In this document: one piece after another, positions 1 to 30,464 of the stretch
Numbering within the stretch: position 1 is the first letter of the stretch
How the letters are laid out: every line of letters starts with the position of its first letter
NCBI GenBank assembly: GCA_023265015.1
Contig: JAHFUO010000023.1
Location: 1 to 33,125 of the forward strand
DNA: 33,125 nucleotides
Source: Acidobacteriota bacterium
GTDB taxonomy: Bacteria > Acidobacteriota > Vicinamibacteria > Vicinamibacterales > UBA2999
Direction of reading: 5' to 3'
The notes under the pieces: model-generated
What the model was told of the DNA's origin: nothing
Database searches by the model: none
Seen by the model: only the letters and a program-made list of their open reading frames with translations
Position numbers and translations under genes: made by a program

Positions 1-2801
1 CTCTGCGCATCCGGCGCGGCCGCGAGCGCGAACCGTTCGCCGTCGGGATGCAGATCGAAGCTCCGCTGCCTGCGCGGGGCGAACCGGGTCTCAGACCAGA
101 CGCTCGGTTTCGCGGCTTGAAGAGAGTCGCCGTCCACCGTGTAGGTCGCCACCATGATCCGATTGTCCGGGGCCGAGTAGAACAGCTCGCGGCGCGTGCG
201 CGACCAGGTGGGAAAATTACCGCCGGCGGTGGACACCTGCCACTTGCCACCCGGTCCAGGAAACGGGCGCACGTAGACTTCGTAGCGACCGGACTCGTTT
301 GATTGGTACGCCAGCCATCGCCCGTCGGGCGAGAACATCGGCTCCCGTTCGTCGAAGGGGCTGTTCAGGAACACCGTGGGCTTGCCAGGCTTCCAGCCTG
401 ATGCCTCGTCCCCTTCCATCGGCAGGATCATCAGGTCGTCGTTGACTGTGTGGATCTCCCGGAAGGCCAGGAACTTCCCGCTCGGGTGCCACGAGCCGGT
501 AAATTGAACGGCCTTGCTCTCCGTGAGACGCTGCACGTCGCCGGTGCCGTCGGCCCGCTGCCAATAGAGATTGAACGCCCCGCCATTCCGCGCCGACGTA
601 AACACGATGCGACGTCCATCCGGCGTCCAGACTGGTTTTTGGTCCGGGGCGGGATCGAACGTCAGGCGCGTCAGCGTATCGCGGGCCCACTCGTAGACCC
701 AGACGTCTGTCTGCTGCTTGTCGACGATGTCAACGGCGAGCCGGCGGCTGTCGGGCGCAAACTGCGGATTGCTCCAGTTGGTCGCGGCCGCACGGAGCGG
801 CAGTGTCTTTCCACCGCGGTCCATCCAGACGATCGGCGCGTCGGCGGTCACGGTCTGCCCTGGCAGGTAGACCAGCGTGCCGTTGCCAGAGACCGCAAAC
901 TGAGCCCCGCCGACGGTCGGGTTCGCTGCCGCCATGACGCCCTCCATGACGGGTACCGCCTGGCCGGTCACTTCCACTCGATCCAGGTCGAAGGGCGCGG
1001 CGAACAACGTCCCTTCGTGGAGGTACACGAGATGCCCGCTGGGCAGATATCTACCGTAGTAGCCGCCCCGCTGCACGACGACCTTCCGCTCACCCGCCGG
1101 CAGCGGCTGCACGACGAGGCTCGCGTCGTCCGCCACGCCCATTGTGTGTTCGCTTGTATAGAGCAAGGCTTTGCCGCCCGGCAGCATTTGCGGCCAGCGC
1201 TGCGTAACTTCGCCTTCCGCGAGCGTCGTCAGCGGTTGCGGTGTCCCGCCGGCTGACGGCACGCGCAGCAGGCGGATCTGCACCGTGCTGTCGGGGGTGA
1301 ACACAATCGTGCCGTCCTCGGCCCACGTGCCGCCGCGGCCGTTCGGCGCGTCGCAGAGCGTGACCGCAGCGCCACCGGTCACGGAGATTTTCTTCAGCTT
1401 CCCCCCGGCAAAGAACGCCACCCATTGGCCGTCGGGCGAGAAGAAGGGATTCCGCGCGCCGTCGGTACCAGAGAGCGGCGTCGCCTGCAACTGATCAAGT
1501 CGACGGACGAACAACTGAGCGTCGCCGCCCGCGCTCTTCTGTGCGGCGAAGACGAGCAGACGGCCGTCCGGCGAGAGGACTGCGGCGGCGCCCTGATCGA
1601 GCACGAGTGACGCATCGGCGCCCAACTCCGCGCTCACGCGCACGGCCGCGGGCGGCGGCACCGTTCGCCACGGCGCCCACAGCCCGAGTACGACCGCGAG
1701 CGCTACCAGCGCGCTTCCCAGCAGCGCCCACGGCAGCGCCCGCCGCCATCCGGATGGCTGAGCGTCAACGCTCACCCCGCTGACGGCGTTCGCGTCGATC
1801 AAGGGTGTTGCCAGCGCTTCGTCGATCTCCAGCCGTGCAGAGGCGATGTCCGGCAAGCGGCGCTTGCGATCTTTCTCCCCGCAACGGCGGAGCAGCTTCC
1901 GAATCTCCGGTGGTGTTCCGGCTGGAAGCGCGGACCAATCAGGCGCATCGCGCAGCACGGCCACCAGCGTGTCCGACACATCGTCGCCCGCGAACGCCCG
2001 CTTCCCCGAGAGCATCTCGAAGACGACGCAGCCGAACGCCCAGATGTCGCAGCGCTTGTCCGCCTCGCGCCCCTTCGCCTGCTCCGGCGCCATGTAGGCC
2101 GCGGTACCGAGCAGCACGCCGGCGCCGGTCATCATCGCGGGCGAGGTGATGGTGGGCGACATCGACAGATGGGCTGCGTCCTGCCCCGTCACCGCGGCGG
2201 GTCCGCTTCGCGGAACCCGCCCTACGTCTGTCAATTTCGCCAGGCCAAAATCGAGCACTTTCACCGTGCCGTCAGGCCGTACTTTGATGTTCGCGGGCTT
2301 CAGATCGCGGTGAATGATGCCCTGCTCGTGCGCCGCTTCGAGCGCGTCGGCAATCTGTCGCGCGATTGGCAATGCCTCATCGAGTGGGATCGGCCCCGCG
2401 GCGATGCGGCCGGCCAATGTCGGTCCCTCGACGAGCTCGAGGACCAGCGCACGGATGGGCCGGCTCAAGCCGGCCCCCACGTCGGGAGTTTCTTCGGGGC
2501 CTCCATGTACATAGGGGCCGGCTTCAGTTTCATGTACGTGGGGGCCGGCTTTAGCCGGCCCGTCTTCGAGGCCGTAGATCTGCGCGATGTTCGGATGATT
2601 CAGCGAGGCGAGGACTTTGGCCTCGCGCTCGAAGCGCGCCAGCCGATCGGGATCTTTCGTGAAGAGATCGGGCAGGACTTTCAGGGCGACGTCACGGTCG
2701 AGTTTCGTATCGCGCGCGCGATACACCTCGCCCATGCCGCCGGCGCCGATGGCGGAGAGGATTTCATACGGACCGAGCCGGGTACCGGGACCGAGCGACA
2801 T
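1..2801 (-). CDS. Serine/threonine protein kinase with C-terminal TolB/WD40-like (PD40) propeller; 3' end runs off the window
   Basis: Manual minus-strand translation from ATG at 2801: MSLGPGTRLGPYEILSAIGAGGMGEVYRARDTKLDRDVALKVLP...HRDLKPANIKV...DFGLAKL...GTAAYMAPEQAKGREADKRCDIWAFGCVVFEMLSGKRAF, then a TM segment and repeated SPDGRxxxF propeller motifs. I checked the frame at several points with no stop seen. It is absent from the ORF track, probably because it is incomplete at the window edge. Confidence 0.93.
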   Translation of the reverse strand, partial: MSLGPGTRLGPYEILSAIGAGGMGEVYRARDTKLDRDVALKVLPDLFTKDPDRLARFEREAKVLASLNHPNIAQIYGLEDGPAKAGPHVHETEAGPYVHGGPEETPDVGAGLSRPIRALVLELVEGPTLAGRIAAGPIPLDEALPIARQIADALEAAHEQGIIHRDLKPANIKVRPDGTVKVLDFGLAKLTDVGRVPRSGPAAVTGQDAAHLSMSPTITSPAMMTGAGVLLGTAAYMAPEQAKGREADKRCDIWAFGCVVFEMLSGKRAFAGDDVSDTLVAVLRDAPDWSALPAGTPPEIRKLLRRCGEKDRKRRLPDIASARLEIDEALATPLIDANAVSGVSVDAQPSGWRRALPWALLGSALVALAVVLGLWAPWRTVPPPAAVRVSAELGADASLVLDQGAAAVLSPDGRLLVFAAQKSAGGDAQLFVRRLDQLQATPLSGTDGARNPFFSPDGQWVAFFAGGKLKKISVTGGAAVTLCDAPNGRGGTWAEDGTIVFTPDSTVQIRLLRVPSAGGTPQPLTTLAEGEVTQRWPQMLPGGKALLYTSEHTMGVADDASLVVQPLPAGERKVVVQRGGYYGRYLPSGHLVYLHEGTLFAAPFDLDRVEVTGQAVPVMEGVMAAANPTVGGAQFAVSGNGTLVYLPGQTVTADAPIVWMDRGGKTLPLRAAATNWSNPQFAPDSRRLAVDIVDKQQTDVWVYEWARDTLTRLTFDPAPDQKPVWTPDGRRIVFTSARNGGAFNLYWQRADGTGDVQRLTESKAVQFTGSWHPSGKFLAFREIHTVNDDLMILPMEGDEASGWKPGKPTVFLNSPFDEREPMFSPDGRWLAYQSNESGRYEVYVRPFPGPGGKWQVSTAGGNFPTWSRTRRELFYSAPDNRIMVATYTVDGDSLQAAKPSVWSETRFAPRRQRSFDLHPDGERFALAAAPDAQ
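2190..2225. repeat. GC-rich palindromic element embedded in the kinase CDS (GGCGGGTCCGC-TTCG-CGGAACCCGCC core 2196-2221)
   Basis: Near-perfect inverted repeat. On the coding strand it reads GTAGGGCGGGTTCCGCGAAGCGGACCCGCC. Confidence 0.8.
2455..2562. repeat. Composite palindromic element cluster (three GGGCCGGCTT/AAGCCGGCCC-type units) embedded in the kinase CDS
   Basis: GGGCCGGCTCAAGCCGGCCCCCACGT ... CATGTACATAGGGGCCGGCTTCAG ... CATGTACGTGGGGGCCGGCTTTAGCCGGCCC. Confidence 0.8.
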
Positions 2802-3660: not shown

Positions 3661-5232
3661 CTACACGCCGGCGCGCTTCTGGAGCTGCGCGGCGTTCTGG
3701 GCAGCCTCGTCGCGGTGCTGCGCTTCCTCGGTCATCGCGCGCTGCTGTCGCGCGATCTGGCGGGCCTTGCCCGCCTCGCTGCCTGGTCCCGCGCTGATCC
3801 TGTCGATCGCCTCGCGCCGGAGCGTCACGCTCAGGTCGTAACATCGCTGGGCGAGGCCGAAGGCCGCTGCGCCCGACGCCCACTGCTGCCGCTCGGCGCG
3901 GACGGCGCCGAGGAGGAACGCCGCCTCGCACTGCCCGGCGTCGATTGTCAGCGCGTCCTGCAGCTCGGCTTCGCTGCTGTCGAACCGGCGGTCGTGCCAC
4001 TCGATCATGCCGGAGAGGACGAAGACCGGCGCGCTGTGCATCAGCCCCTTCGCGCGATCGGTGTCGATGCGCGCCTCCTCGATGCGCGCGAGGTGATACT
4101 CGTTCCACGCTCGCCAGTAGTACGCCTCCCCGGTGAACCAGGTGCCCAGCTCGAGGATCCGCGTTGCGGCCGCGACGGCGTCCTCGTAGCGCTCGAGGTG
4201 CGAGAGCGTCACCGCGCGCCCGAGCAGCGCGTCGCGATGCGTCGGCACCATGGTCAACGTGGCCTCGTACGCGTCGAGCGCATCCGCCCACTCCTCACGA
4301 TCCTCGCGCAGCGAGCCGAGGCTTGCCACGACGGCCGGCGAGCCGGGGAACGTCGCGCGGGCGGCGGTGAACCGGCGCAGCGCCTCGTCCTGATCGGGCT
4401 GCTGCGGAATGTCGAGCGCGTAGCGGCCGAGCGTGAGGTCGACGTCGACGAAATCCGGATCGGCGTCCTGCACCGCCGTCAGGTGCGGCGCCTGCGACGG
4501 CCCGCACAGGCCGGCCCGATACTCGATGAGCGGGACGTCGGGGAAGCGCTGCACTGCGGCGGCAATCGTGACGTTGCGATCGTCCACCACGTACTGGCAG
4601 ACGAGCGACAGCTCGAGATACGCGCGCAGCACTGGAGAGCCCGCGCCCTGGCCGAGGTCGGCGCGCCAGCCCGCCACCGTTTCGCGCGTCGCGCGGTATT
4701 TCAAAGTGTCGGTCAGGATGGCGTCGCGATCGCCGCTCAGGGGATCGATGCGAAGCGAGAGAACGATGGCGAGGTAGTCGGACCAGTCGGGCCCGGCGGG
4801 CATCGAAGCGCGGGCGCGATCGAGCCACGGCTCGTAGGGGAGGCCGAGCTCTTTCGCGCGCGCGGCGAGCAGAAGCGCGGACTCGAAGGCCTGCGGTGCC
4901 AGACGAAGGCGGACCTGCCATCCTTCGCGCTCCGCGCTTCGGAGGCCCGCCGAAGCCTTGGCGGAGGCGGGAAGGTCCGCCTCTACGGGCGATGCAGCCG
5001 GGGTCAGACTCGCGCGACCGCGCGAATCTGACCCCGTCGCGAGGTTATACGCCTGTTCGAGGCACTGGTAACAGCCGCGCTTGATGAGAGCGTCGACGCC
5101 GGCGCGCGCAGACGCTGCCGTCGCGGCGGAGGAGACAGGCGCGCGGGCGGCGCAGGCGGCGCCGGACAGCGCCGCGAGCACTGCCGCGACGAGCGTCGCG
5201 GCGCGTGCGCACGTGCGGGCATGGTGGCCCAT
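3661..5232 (-). CDS. Secreted TPR-repeat protein
   Basis: Minus ORF 3661..5259 with likely start MGHHARTCARAATLVAAVLAALSGAAC at 5232. It has a hydrophobic N-terminus and several TPR-like helical repeats (EWADALDAYEATLTMVPTHRDALLGRAVTLSHLERYEDAV...). Confidence 0.8.
   Translation of the reverse strand: MGHHARTCARAATLVAAVLAALSGAACAARAPVSSAATAASARAGVDALIKRGCYQCLEQAYNLATGSDSRGRASLTPAASPVEADLPASAKASAGLRSAEREGWQVRLRLAPQAFESALLLAARAKELGLPYEPWLDRARASMPAGPDWSDYLAIVLSLRIDPLSGDRDAILTDTLKYRATRETVAGWRADLGQGAGSPVLRAYLELSLVCQYVVDDRNVTIAAAVQRFPDVPLIEYRAGLCGPSQAPHLTAVQDADPDFVDVDLTLGRYALDIPQQPDQDEALRRFTAARATFPGSPAVVASLGSLREDREEWADALDAYEATLTMVPTHRDALLGRAVTLSHLERYEDAVAAATRILELGTWFTGEAYYWRAWNEYHLARIEEARIDTDRAKGLMHSAPVFVLSGMIEWHDRRFDSSEAELQDALTIDAGQCEAAFLLGAVRAERQQWASGAAAFGLAQRCYDLSVTLRREAIDRISAGPGSEAGKARQIARQQRAMTEEAQHRDEAAQNAAQLQKRAGV
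4907..4986 (-). repeat. 80-bp palindromic dispersed element, copy 1 (inside TPR-protein CDS)
   Basis: Reverse complement GTAGAGGCGGACCTTCCCGCCTCCGCCAAGGCTTCGGCGGGCCTCCGAAGCGCGGAGCGCGAAGGATGGCAGGTCCGCCT differs from 9981-10060 at one base by direct reading. Confidence 0.92.
5000..5035. repeat. GGGGTCAGA-type inverted repeat inside TPR-protein CDS
   Basis: GGGGTCAGACTCGCGCG-AC-CGCGCGAATCTGACCCC: 17-bp arms with one mismatch and a 2-nt loop. Confidence 0.9.
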
Positions 5233-8906: not shown

Positions 8907-9305
8907 ATGAAAAAAATCATCAAAATTCTGTTGACCTCGGCCACTGTCCTGGCGTTCCTGGCGGGCACACCCGCGATCGCGCATCACTCCGCCAACGCCG
9001 AGTTCAACACGCAAGAGCAGCTCACGATCACCGGCGTACTCACGAAGGTCGAGAATGTGAACCCGCACTCGTGGTGGTACGTCGACGTCAAGGATTCCGA
9101 TGGAAAGGTCAGCTCGTGGAGGCTGGAATCCAACAGCCCGAGCGGCCTCATCCGGCTGGGTCTGAAGGTCAAGACCGAGGTCAAGATCGGAGACATTGTC
9201 AGCTTCAGGATTTCGCCGGCCTGGAAGGACCCTGAGGGCTCCAAGCTCGGGTGGATGAGATCGATCACGGTGAACGGCAAGGAGTTCGTGCTCACCGAGC
9301 TCTAG
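8907..9305 (+). CDS. DUF6152 family secreted protein (paralog A)
   Basis: Signal peptide ending AIA, then HHSANAEFNTQEQLTITGVLTKVENVNPHSWWYVDVK; close paralog of 22743..23138. Confidence 0.88.
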   Translation: MKKIIKILLTSATVLAFLAGTPAIAHHSANAEFNTQEQLTITGVLTKVENVNPHSWWYVDVKDSDGKVSSWRLESNSPSGLIRLGLKVKTEVKIGDIVSFRISPAWKDPEGSKLGWMRSITVNGKEFVLTEL

Positions 9306-9307
9306 GA

Positions 9308-9500
9308 AACCAGTTCTCGGGTTGCTCTGGTGCTCGGGTGCTCAGGTTCTGGTTCTCCGGTTCATGGCAAGGGTTCACGGTGCTCAGGTGGTTCCTCCGG
9401 TTCACAGGTTTTCCGCGCGAACCCACCGGTGCACCCAAGAACCGATGAACCCGCGCACCGGAACCCAAGCACCTGAGCACCCGAGCAACCTGAGAACCGT
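9308..9500. repeat. Long low-complexity imperfect inverted repeat built from GGTTCTC/GGTGCTCGGG-type words
   Basis: Left part is rich in GGTTCTC, GGTGCTC and GGTTCA; right part carries the complementary GAACC, GAGCACC and TGAACC, e.g. GTTCTCGGGTTGCTC...GAGCAACCTGAGAAC. Confidence 0.8.
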
Positions 9501-9980: not shown

Positions 9981-10060
9981 GTAGAGGCGGGCCTTCCCGC
10001 CTCCGCCAAGGCTTCGGCGGGCCTCCGAAGCGCGGAGCGCGAAGGATGGCAGGTCCGCCT
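9981..10060 (+). repeat. 80-bp palindromic dispersed element, copy 2 (intergenic)
   Basis: GTAGAGGCGGGCCTTCCCGCC...GGATGGCAGGTCCGCCT; 79/80 identical by eye to the reverse complement of 4907-4986. Confidence 0.92.
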
Positions 10061-17696: not shown

Positions 17697-18479
17697 ATGA
17701 AAATGGAGCGAAAGAGCCTGCTGGCGGGCGCCTCCGGGGCGCGCGGCATCGTCGTGATCATCGACGTGCTGCGCGCCTTCAGCTGCAGCGCGCTGATGTT
17801 CCGCTACGGCATCAAGGACATCGTCCTCGTGCGCACGCCGGCGGAAGCGCTCGACCTTCGCGAGCGCGACCCGCGGTGCCTCGTCGCGGGCGAGGTGAAG
17901 GGCGTCAAGGTCGACGGCTTCGATCTCGGGAATTCGCCCGCCGACATCGTCGCGAAGGGCGAGGCGTTCTTCCGCGACCGCCGCGTGGCGCTGCGATCGT
18001 CCGCCGGCACGCAGGGCGTGCTCGCCGCGAGTGCGACCGCGGACCAGATCATTCTCGGCAGCTACATGACCGCGGCCGCCACCGCGCGCCATATTCGCCG
18101 CGCCGCGCGGCCGGGCACCGTCGTCACGATTGTGGCCATGGGCTTCGAAGGGGTCGAGCCCTCCGTCGAGGACGAGCGGTGCGGCGATTATCTGGAGCAT
18201 CTGCTGAGCGTGGGGGCCGGCTTCAGCTCGAGCGTGGGGGCCGGCTTTCCTGCCCGCCGAAGCTCGGAAAGCGAAGGCGGGAGCCGGCCCTATGATCACG
18301 TCGCGGCGCTGTGGGACTGCCTGAACGATCCCTCCATCGCCATGAGCCTTCGCGGACAGCACGACTACCGGCCGAAGGAGGACATCATCCTCGCGCTGCA
18401 GCGCGATCTCTTTGATTTCGTGATGGTTGGAGCGCTCGAAGGCGACCACGTGCGCGTCACGCGCCAACCTTCGCGATAG
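17697..18479 (+). CDS. ComB-like 2-phosphosulfolactate phosphatase family protein (with in-frame repeat insertion)
   Basis: GIVVIIDVLRAFSCSALMFRYG...CLVAGEVKGVKVDGFDLGNSPADI...LRSSAGTQGVL...MGFEGVEPSVEDERCGDYLEHLL...RPYDHVAALWDC. Confidence 0.85.
   Translation: MKMERKSLLAGASGARGIVVIIDVLRAFSCSALMFRYGIKDIVLVRTPAEALDLRERDPRCLVAGEVKGVKVDGFDLGNSPADIVAKGEAFFRDRRVALRSSAGTQGVLAASATADQIILGSYMTAAATARHIRRAARPGTVVTIVAMGFEGVEPSVEDERCGDYLEHLLSVGAGFSSSVGAGFPARRSSESEGGSRPYDHVAALWDCLNDPSIAMSLRGQHDYRPKEDIILALQRDLFDFVMVGALEGDHVRVTRQPSR
18206..18292 (+). repeat. Palindromic element cluster (GTGGGGGCCGGCTT units plus nested GCCCGCCGAAGC...GCGAAGGCGGG) inside ComB CDS
   Basis: GCGTGGGGGCCGGCTTCAGCTCGAGCGTGGGGGCCGGCTTTCCTGCCCGCCGAAGCTCGGAAAGCGAAGGCGGGAGCCGGCCC. 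Confidence 0.85.
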
Positions 18480-22742: not shown

Positions 22743-23138
22743 ATGGTCAAGAAGATTGTCATCGCATCCGCCGCCGTTCTGGCGCTGCTGATGATCGGCG
22801 CCCCCGCGATGGCGCACCATTCGGCGAACGCGGAGTTCAACACGCAGGAGCAATTCACGATCACCGGCGTGCTCACGAAGGTTGAGAACGTCAATCCGCA
22901 CTCCTGGTGGTACGTCGACGTCAAAGGGCCGGATGGCAAAATGACCTCGTGGAAGCTGGAATCGCTGAGCCCGAGCGGTCTGATTCGCCAGGGTCTGAAG
23001 GTCAAGACCGAGCTCAAGATCGGCGATACGTACAGCTACCGGATCTCTCCCGCGTGGAAGGACCCCGAGGGCGCGAAGCTGGGGTTCATGCGGGCGATCA
23101 CCATGAACGGCAAGGAATACATCGTCGTCGAACTGTAG
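22743..23138 (+). CDS. DUF6152 family secreted protein (paralog B)
   Basis: Signal peptide ending AMA, then HHSANAEFNTQEQFTITGVLTKVENVNPHSWWYVDVKGPDGK; very similar to 8907..9305. Confidence 0.88.
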   Translation: MVKKIVIASAAVLALLMIGAPAMAHHSANAEFNTQEQFTITGVLTKVENVNPHSWWYVDVKGPDGKMTSWKLESLSPSGLIRQGLKVKTELKIGDTYSYRISPAWKDPEGAKLGFMRAITMNGKEYIVVEL

Positions 23139-24155: not shown

Positions 24156-24542
24156 TTACATCTTTGCGAGATGCCACACCATGCCGCGGCCCTCGCCGAG
24201 CTTGTCACCGGCGGCCTTGTCCATCACGAAGTAATAGAGCGGCTTGCCCTTGTACGCCCACTGCTTCGAGCCATCGTCACGGGTGATGACCTTCCAGTCG
24301 CCGAGGTCCTTGTCGGCGGCCTCGGCCTTCAGCACGGGCCAGTTGTTCAGGCAATTACCGGCACAGGCCGACTTGTTCGCTTCTTTGTCGTTATCGAAGG
24401 TGTACAGCGACATGCCCTTCGCATCCATCAGCATGCCATTCGCCGCATGCACGGCGGCCGGCATCGTCGGAGTCTGGGCGACGGCATATCCGCTCACCGC
24501 CACGGCCAATATGGCCGACGCCACAACAGTCATTGCTCGCAT
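24156..24542 (-). CDS. Secreted Yx(FWY)xxD-repeat protein (COG4315-like), copy 1
   Basis: MRAMTVVASAILAVAVSGYAVAQ...LYTFDNDKEANKSACAGNCLNNWPVL...KPLYYFVMDKAAGD; AGGAG RBS upstream. Confidence 0.85.
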   Translation of the reverse strand: MRAMTVVASAILAVAVSGYAVAQTPTMPAAVHAANGMLMDAKGMSLYTFDNDKEANKSACAGNCLNNWPVLKAEAADKDLGDWKVITRDDGSKQWAYKGKPLYYFVMDKAAGDKLGEGRGMVWHLAKM

Positions 24543-29488: not shown

Positions 29489-30099
29489 CGCTCGTCCGTC
29501 GCGGCTGGCGTCCAGCCGGTAATCATTCCTCGCACGCGGTCCGTGAAGCCGGCGCGCCACACCATCCCGATGTGCACCAGAAGAAACAGAACAAGGAGAT
29601 CCGCCGCGAAGAAATGAATGGTCCGCGCCGACTGCTGCCCGCCCAGCACGCGCACGGCGCCGGGCACAACCGAGACGATCGCGGGAGACATCGCGAGGCC
29701 GCTCCAGATCATCAGGGGGAACAGCGCGAAGACGACGATCAGGTACGTGCGTCGCTGAAGGGGGTTGTAGTCGCGCATGCGGAAGTGCCGGGTCCACAAG
29801 CCGTACAAAACGTAGATCGCGCCGGTCGCGACGGCGATCCACGCGGAGAGAAAGTGCAGATACCGGCCCCAGCCCGTTTGACCCGTCAGGACAAGCGGGA
29901 GCGGCAGATCGATGAGAGAGGGCGCTCCCACGGCCCCGGTTTCACCCCAGTAGAGCCGTGGGTGAGCCAGCAGAATCGCGACGCCGCTGACGAGCAGCGC
30001 GCAGAAGGCGACCGCGGTCATCCAGTGCGTGATGCGCACGAGGGTGGAGTGCCGCGGACGATCCGTTGATCGCTCCTCTACATCTTGGCGAGATGCCAC
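29485..30099 (-). CDS. Cytochrome b561/b6-domain membrane protein
   Basis: GTG start at 30099; HSTLVRITHWMTAVAFCALLVSGVAILL...LHFLSAWIAVATGAIYVLYG...IHFFAADLLVLFLLVHIGMVWRAGF; stop overlaps the downstream ATG. Confidence 0.88.
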   Translation of the reverse strand: MASRQDVEERSTDRPRHSTLVRITHWMTAVAFCALLVSGVAILLAHPRLYWGETGAVGAPSLIDLPLPLVLTGQTGWGRYLHFLSAWIAVATGAIYVLYGLWTRHFRMRDYNPLQRRTYLIVVFALFPLMIWSGLAMSPAIVSVVPGAVRVLGGQQSARTIHFFAADLLVLFLLVHIGMVWRAGFTDRVRGMITGWTPAATDER

Positions 30100-30464
30100 A
30101 CCATGCCGCGGCCTTCGCCGAGCTTGTCACCGGCCGCCTTGTCCATCACGAAGTAATAGAGCGGCTTGCCCTTGTACGCCCACTGCTTCGAGCCATCGTC
30201 ACGGGTGATGACCTTCCAGTCGCCGATGTCCTTGTCGGCGGCCTCGGCCTTCAGCACGGGCCAGTTGTTCAGGCAATTGCCGGCACAGGCCGACTTGTTC
30301 GCCTCTTTGTCATTGTCGAAGGTGTACAGCGACATGCCCTTGGCATCCATCAGCATGCCATTCGTCATATGCACGGCGGCCGGCATCGTCGGAGTCTGGG
30401 CAACGGCGTATCCACTCACCGCCACCGCCAATATGGCCGACGCCACAACAGTCATTGCTCGCAT
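30078..30464 (-). CDS. Secreted Yx(FWY)xxD-repeat protein (COG4315-like), copy 2
   Basis: Differs from copy 1 (24156..24542) at about three residues; upstream leader also conserved. Confidence 0.85.
   Translation of the reverse strand: MRAMTVVASAILAVAVSGYAVAQTPTMPAAVHMTNGMLMDAKGMSLYTFDNDKEANKSACAGNCLNNWPVLKAEAADKDIGDWKVITRDDGSKQWAYKGKPLYYFVMDKAAGDKLGEGRGMVWHLAKM

What the first reader, a model, noticed from the sequence alone, without database searches (positions are those of the whole stretch)
4907..4986. 80-bp palindromic element present both in frame inside a CDS and as an intergenic copy at 9981-10060
Reading both loci base by base, the reverse complement of 4907-4986 matches 9981-10060 at 79 of 80 positions. 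One copy encodes VEADLPASAKASAGLRSAEREGWQVR within the TPR protein; the other is non-coding. Such high identity over a discrete 80-bp unit suggests a recently mobile, short non-autonomous element that can insert into genes without destroying them. This is analogous to Rickettsia palindromic elements; I do not know a named family for this one. The coding copies in this window (here, 2190, 2455 and 18206) are read in the same phase (GTA GAG GCG / GTA GGG CGG / GTG GGG GCC), which avoids the TAG in GTAG.
Basis: partly seen in the sequence, partly recalled or inferred. Interest (0 to 1): 0.82.

Follow-up and report, generated by a model that had tools for sequence, protein, structure and literature searches.

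The report
REP hairpin carrying a nested palindrome
The 80-bp repeat is a known kind of tiny mobile bacterial hairpin (a GTAG-tagged REP) that has slipped into genes without breaking them, but its loop holds a second, separately tagged mini-palindrome that sits in the loops of several unrelated REP families and whose core is found unchanged in about a dozen bacterial phyla, which seems not to have been described.

Summary
Observation confirmed: 4907-4986 (-) and 9981-10060 (+) match at 79/80. The unit is a composite. Outer part: a GTAG-tagged REP (GTAG-AGGCSGACCT..AGGTCSGCCT), 59 near-exact short-loop copies in this draft acidobacterial genome (control 0), present in 14 of 59 genomes searched; in relative G014 a Y1/RAYT gene is flanked on both sides by it. 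The genome's own six Y1 genes are flanked by other palindromes, one identical to the window's 2457/2538/18210 repeats. Inner part: a second palindrome, CYTGY-CCGMCGAAGC-N-GCGAAGKCGG, 54 copies (control 0), with compensatory pairs. 21 of 54 sit between paired REP arms (2% at shifted sites), plus about ten dimeric ones, in at least five REP families; the same nesting is seen in another genus. The inner core occurs exactly in about twelve phyla with the CYTGY tag conserved. Same-genus orthologs of the TPR protein and of a 2-phosphosulfolactate phosphatase lack 41 and about 24 residues there, so both are in-frame insertions. In-frame REPs are already known (Di Nocera 2013); the loop-nested, pan-phylum tagged module appears new. 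The Rickettsia analogy holds for behaviour, not membership. The enzyme that moves the inner module is unknown.

The parts
4907..4986 (-). composite element: GTAG foot 4983-4986, left arm AGGCGGACCT 4973-4982, right arm AGGTCCGCCT 4907-4916, nested module between; in frame in the TPR ORF
   Evidence: folds as a nested hairpin (z -4.5)
4947..4970 (+). inner module core CCGCCGAAGCCTTGGCGGAGGCGG (its inverted, degenerate partner at about 4920-4945 makes it dimeric)
9981..10060 (+). intergenic copy of the composite, 79/80; module core 9997-10020 (-)
5000..5035 (.). second palindrome GGGGTCAGACTCGCGCGACCGCGCGAATCTGACCCC inside the same 41-residue insertion; the GGGGTCAGACCCC type also flanks Y1 genes L034, L223, L226
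3661..5259 (-). TPR-protein ORF (532 aa) carrying the insertion; same-genus ortholog lacks residues 83-123
2457..2480 (-). REP of family P (GTGGGGGCCGGCTT/AGCCGGCCC) in frame in the Ser/Thr kinase gene, between two regions that match PknA
2538..2561 (+). second family-P REP, inverted partner of 2457-2480, in frame in the kinase gene
2196..2225 (-). GTAGGGCGGGTTCC..GGACCCGCC REP in frame in the kinase gene; its type flanks RAYT L031
18210..18233 (+). partial family-P REP unit in frame in the 2-phosphosulfolactate phosphatase gene
18234..18290 (+). family-P REP with the inner module (18254-18280) in its loop, in frame in the same gene; same-genus ortholog lacks residues 171-196

Best explanation
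The 80-bp unit is a two-layer element. The outer layer is a GTAG-tagged REP of the RAYT/TnpAREP kind: a hairpin with a GTAG foot that a Y1 (HUH) transposase can cut and rejoin as single-stranded DNA; such REPs are non-autonomous and spread through the chromosome. The loop of this REP has received a second palindrome with its own foot (CYTGY), a CCGMC/GKCGG stem, a symmetrical GAA/GAA internal loop and a variable inner stem. This inner module is a separate small mobile element: it occupies loops of several unrelated REP families and also occurs alone. Most likely it inserts into single-stranded hairpin loops exposed during replication, leaving no target duplication, so that REP loops are favoured landing sites; once nested, the composite can be copied as one unit (79/80 pair). 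Insertions whose length is a multiple of three and whose phase avoids TAG are tolerated in protein loops. Shown: composite anatomy, copy numbers, RAYT-REP pairing, nesting statistics, covariation, phylum spread, two empty sites. Inferred: single-strand insertion, a Y1-type enzyme for the inner module, co-mobilisation, neutrality in the proteins.
For: Outer REP: 65 exact GTAGAGGCSGACCT arms and 100 with <=1 mismatch (reversed control 10); 59 short-loop units with 0 control, 14 of 59 genomes searched; RAYT of G014 (L215) flanked on both sides by GTAGGGGCGGACCTTAAGGTCCGCCCCTAC; six Y1 genes in the own genome, each with flanking palindromes. Nested loops: REP A, 46 of 77 copies have a 2-nt loop and about 16 a 31-71-nt loop with a palindrome; REP P, 37 of 57 have none and 14 a 24-66-nt loop. 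Module: 54 copies, control 0; M/K pair C-G 39, A-T 14, mismatch 1; 98% of cells paired, covariation 0.227 against 0.054 shuffled, 0 of 500; 21 of 54 within >=6-bp paired flanks against 1.9% at shifted positions, plus about ten dimeric modules inside REP arms; same nesting with other REP stems in G033. Exact core in >=114 contigs of about 12 phyla, about 0.1 expected by composition (own estimate); CYTGY tag conserved there (-5 C 77/108, -2 G 86/108, -1 Y 91/108). Empty sites.
Against: No transposase is found next to the inner module in 48 Y1 loci or, by a motif search, near the cross-phylum copies. No relative was found in which the same REP copy exists with and without the module, so insertion into a pre-existing REP is inferred from many copies, not seen at one site. 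In other phyla only 9 of 108 modules lie in paired flanks (1.3 expected), so loop targeting is a bias, not a rule. Module type and orientation are partly tied to REP family (D-type with P, B-type with A), which co-amplification alone would also give. The cognate RAYT of REP A is missing from this assembly (92% complete).
Confidence: 0.68

Rival explanations
1. The long-loop form is simply a structural variant of the REP family: one REP with a large self-complementary loop (as reported for GTAG-3, -14 and -15), copied by its RAYT; short-loop copies are deletion derivatives. No independent inner element exists.
For: Long self-complementary loops are known in REPs (PMC3733652); the 79/80 pair shows whole-composite copying; module type is partly correlated with REP family.
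Against: The same module, with the same CYTGY tag, lies in loops of at least five REP families with unrelated stems in one genome, of others in G033, alone in genes and spacers, and in about twelve phyla without any sign of these REP stems around most copies.
Confidence: 0.2
2. A family of its own comparable to Rickettsia palindromic elements, specialised in insertion into coding sequence.
For: In-frame insertion without loss of the gene; copies also in RNase P RNA-like sequence in other phyla (L267, L294).
Against: The outer unit has the GTAG/GTGG foot and RAYT association of GTAG REPs; most copies are outside or at the edge of genes; RPEs are 105-146 bp elements (PMC2229807).
Confidence: 0.04
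3. The sequences are kept for a function (RNA hairpins at mRNA ends, terminators, protein-binding sites), and compensatory changes reflect RNA structure rather than transposition.
For: Both strands fold; many copies are near gene ends; such REP functions are published; covariation does not tell DNA from RNA.
Against: In-frame insertions inside genes, two elements side by side at one site, tandem half-REP arrays (L090, L105) and spread across phyla in unrelated contexts fit spread better than local function.
Confidence: 0.08
4. Ancestral protein sequence: the peptide is an old part of the TPR protein.
For: The reading frame is open through the element.
Against: The same-genus ortholog at 77% identity lacks 41 residues exactly there; G006, G016 and G028 also lack them.
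Confidence: 0.01

Closest known systems
GTAG-tagged REPs with RAYT/TnpAREP (PMC2817692; Di Nocera 2013, PMC3733652)
   Same: GTAG or GTGG foot, about 10-bp stem, 2-nt TY loop, high copy, several families per genome each with its own RAYT, intragenic copies that encode 20-30 residues
   Different: A fifth to a quarter of the copies carry a second tagged palindrome in the loop; I did not find these stem sequences named
Double-foot REPs of TnpAY1 subclass 2.4 (PMC6006769)
   Same: GT[AG]G at one end and C[TC]AC at the other in copies beside L215; REPs inside RAYT genes in frame (here L031)
   Different: Subclass was not assigned for these RAYTs; no nested module described there
GTAG-14 REPs of Bradyrhizobium with GCGG/CCGC loops up to 27 bp (PMC3733652)
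   Same: REP with a long self-complementary loop with GCGG/CCGC ends; the module core is frequent in Bradyrhizobium
   Different: Treated there as loop variants of one family; the figure with the sequence could not be read, so identity with the module is untested
Insertion sequences that insert at the symmetry axis of REPs (ISPsy8, ISRm22; PMC1525189)
   Same: The REP hairpin tip is the target
   Different: Those are complete insertion sequences, with direct repeats; the module is 30-60 bp with no gene and no visible target duplication
Rickettsia palindromic elements (PMC2229807)
   Same: Protein-coding palindromes tolerated in frame; also in RNase P RNA
   Different: Other size and host; RPE-4 and RPE-6 belong to the CGTC superfamily (PMC3733652)

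Membership tests
GTAG REP (outer part) | unpaired GTAG (or GTGG) at the foot of a short hairpin | tested here: met
GTAG REP (outer part) | tens to hundreds of copies dispersed in the genome | tested here: met
GTAG REP (outer part) | cognate RAYT gene flanked by the same REP | tested here: met
   met in relative G014 (L215); not found in the own 92%-complete assembly
GTAG REP (outer part) | cleaved and rejoined as single strand by that RAYT | not testable with these tools
   needs purified protein
GTAG REP (inner module) | GTAG foot | tested here: not met
   foot is CYTGY
CGTC REP (inner module) | CGTC foot (also TGTC, CCTC), 8-9 bp stem starting with A-T pairs, CCA-like tail | tested here: not met
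   CYTGY foot, stem starts CCG
REPIN (inverted REP dimer) | two REPs in inverted orientation as a unit | tested here: not met
   the 80-mer is one REP with a nested dimeric module; the kinase gene does hold an inverted REP pair
Rickettsia palindromic element | 105-146 bp Rickettsia element | tested here: not met
   length and host differ
Insertion sequence or MITE with target duplication | direct repeats at the ends | tested here: not met
   the REP loop GACCTTC^AGGTC is interrupted without duplication

The most novel reading that the evidence does not exclude
The inner module is a third superfamily of tagged palindromes (CYTGY-tagged, beside GTAG and CGTC), spread by horizontal transfer over about a dozen phyla, and moved by an unidentified single-strand enzyme that prefers hairpin loops, so that it parasitises REPs: a mobile element nested inside a mobile element, both small enough to be carried in frame inside genes.
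Probability: 0.45. Interest if true: 0.8.

Novelty: new variant of a known kind. Interest (0 to 1): 0.62.

Why it matters
REPs are among the commonest tiny repeats of bacteria, and how they gain new sequence and spread is open. A defined module that recurs in the loops of unrelated REP families, with its own conserved foot and an exact core shared from Patescibacteria to Bradyrhizobium, would be one of the most widely shared non-coding mobile sequences and gives a concrete substrate for assays of loop-directed single-strand insertion. It would also explain odd repeat-like peptides in proteins of environmental bacteria.

Tried and rejected
The ancestral-peptide idea was rejected by orthologs. 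Rfam: no match in the window. A search of paper texts for the module sequence found nothing relevant, nor one for repeats of Vicinamibacteria. The first test of loop insertion across phyla with wide windows was only weakly positive, because it ignored the tag; repeated with the right boundaries it gives 9 of 108 against 1.3 expected. Search for a transposase beside the module: none in 48 Y1 loci and none by motif in the cross-phylum loci. A scan of viral contigs failed twice on the server; plasmid BLAST with a 30-mer found nothing, but is insensitive at that length. My codon-usage caller is crude (it labels the TPR copy 'edge'), so the intragenic counts are lower bounds. No structure prediction was made: the host proteins are ordinary.

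Full report
Observation. The two 80-bp stretches are an inverted pair, 79 of 80 identical, with sharp ends. The window is contig 31 of a draft genome (3.18 Mb, 175 contigs, 92% complete). I take the organism to be an acidobacterium of the Vicinamibacteria kind (inference from gene content and from named matches such as Luteitalea; not proven here).

Outer layer. Read from the GTAG end the unit is GTAG-AGGCGGACCT-...-AGGTCCGCCT. The genome holds 65 exact GTAGAGGCSGACCT arms; most copies are the plain 26-bp hairpin GTAGAGGCSGACCT-TC-AGGTCSGCCT. 14 of 59 genomes searched have it, up to 110 copies, with none for the reversed pattern. This is the published anatomy of GTAG REPs: GTAG foot, stem of 6-13 bp, short TY loop, several families per genome, a fraction inside genes (PMC3733652).

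Partner enzyme. Six Y1 transposase genes are in the genome. L031, L033, L035 and L036 are each flanked by their own REP-like repeat, L034 by GGGGTCAGACCCC palindromes, L032 by a long inverted repeat. The gene flanked by the 80-mer's own REP type was found in relative G014 (L215: GTAGGGGCGGACCTTAAGGTCCGCCCCTAC on both sides). The own genome has no close homolog of it (best 44%), so REP A here is an orphan or its RAYT lies in the missing part.

Inner layer. In about 16 of 77 REP-A copies and 14 of 57 REP-P copies the loop is not 0-2 nt but 24-71 nt and mostly contains a second palindrome. Aligning these shows one superfamily: CYTGY-CCGMC-GAA-GC-N-GC-GAA-GKCGG. The pattern without the tag has 54 matches in the genome and none when read backwards. 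The free outer positions pair (C-G 39, A-T 14, one mismatch) and the free inner position takes three pair types; covariation beats all 500 shuffles and all slid registers (sequences within one genome are related, so the shuffle count is not a probability). It folds with a 3x3 internal loop. In the 80-mer the module is an inverted dimer whose second half is degenerate. A further loop type, CCCTCGAC..GTCGAAGGG, is also seen (L042, L056, L088, L374).

Nesting. With the tag allowed for, 21 of 54 modules lie between perfectly paired flanks of at least 6 bp; shifted positions in the same loci give 1.9%, permuted flanks 9.6%. Dimeric modules, including both window copies, add about ten more by eye. 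Host stems differ: AGGCSGACCT, GGGCCGGCTT, GTCCGGCTT, GGGCGGGTCTT, CGCGGACC, GGCGGGCC. In G033, another genus, the same module sits in other REPs (GTAGAGGCGGGTCTTTCTTGT-module-AAGACCCGCCT; GTAGCGCGGAACTTTCTTGT-module-AAGTTCCGCG). No bases of the REP loop are duplicated.

Spread. The module is abundant in part of the order (87, 62, 43 copies in G033, G037, G038; G037 is a single contig) and in one distant family (G236, 42), but near background in most genomes of the phylum. The exact 24-mer core CCGCCTYCGCCAAGGCTWCGGCGG was found in at least 114 stretches before the scan hit its limit: Acidobacteria, Alpha- and Deltaproteobacteria (including cultured Bradyrhizobium and Reyranella), Verrucomicrobia, Kiritimatiellae, Omnitrophota, Planctomycetota, Elusimicrobia, Nitrospirae, Bacteroidota, Marinimicrobia, Acidimicrobiia and many Patescibacteria. 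At 65% G+C I estimate 0.1 by chance over the collection. The CYTGY tag is conserved there too, so tag plus palindrome is the unit. Some records are metagenome bins and may be misassigned; the cultured isolates and complete genomes are not open to that doubt. Two copies lie in what reads like RNase P RNA genes (L267, L294, recognised by eye only).

In-frame insertions. The same-genus ortholog of the TPR protein (77% identity) matches residues 20-82 and 124-532 in abutting segments, so 41 residues are extra here; three other genera agree. The insert holds two palindromes side by side, 4907-4986 and 5000-5035. The 2-phosphosulfolactate phosphatase ortholog (75%) matches 3-170 and 197-248 with 6 bp between: the REP-plus-module at 18210-18290 is a second in-frame insertion. 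In the kinase gene, the REP pair 2457-2561 falls between the parts that match PknA, where the solved kinases are about 26 residues shorter. Thus three genes of one window carry in-frame REPs.

Phase. Only the phase that reads TAG is forbidden. REP A copies inside genes use both open forward phases and the reverse strand; REP P favours one.

Mechanism. Established: TnpAREP enzymes act on single-stranded, folded REPs and cut and rejoin them (PMC8266576, PMC6006769). In E. coli the upper half of the REP hairpin is described as non-specific, so a REP with cargo in its loop could stay mobile; other groups read the loop, so this must be tested. Inference: the module inserts into exposed hairpin loops, and the composite is then copied. 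The enzyme for the module is unknown.

Known or new. In-frame REPs, REP-RAYT pairing and long REP loops are published. I found no account of a tagged module that recurs in loops of unrelated REP families and across phyla (the library holds open-access papers only).

Noticed in passing
L090 (C93:32162-32266) and L105 (C152:40246-40389): Tandem arrays of a half REP, e.g. GTAGAGGCCGACCTTCAGCAACC repeated, ending in one complete REP.
   Followed up: no
L031, RAYT gene on C161: A REP of the gene's own type lies in frame inside the RAYT gene, as published for TnpAY1 subclass 2.4.
   Followed up: partly
L267 and L294 (other phyla): The module core sits in sequence that reads like RNase P RNA genes; other copies seem to follow tRNA genes directly (L303, L308) (by eye).
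   Followed up: no
window 9310-9500 and L020 (C136:1-170): Repeats made of ...GGTTCTCAGGTGCTCGGGTGCTC... and their inverted form, shared between two places of the genome, one beside a module.
   Followed up: no
window 24157-24456 and 30079-30378; 8964-9263 and 22797-23096: Long direct repeats at 96% and 80% identity, probably duplicated genes.
   Followed up: no
L042, L056, L088, L374: A second loop type, CCCTCGAC...CCTGAGCGAAGTCGAAGGG, occupies REP loops at the same site; it resembles palindromes that I recall from many phyla.
   Followed up: partly
L034, L223, L226: GGGGTCAGACCCC palindromes flank a different Y1 group in three genomes, and one such palindrome is beside the 80-mer in the TPR gene.
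   Followed up: partly
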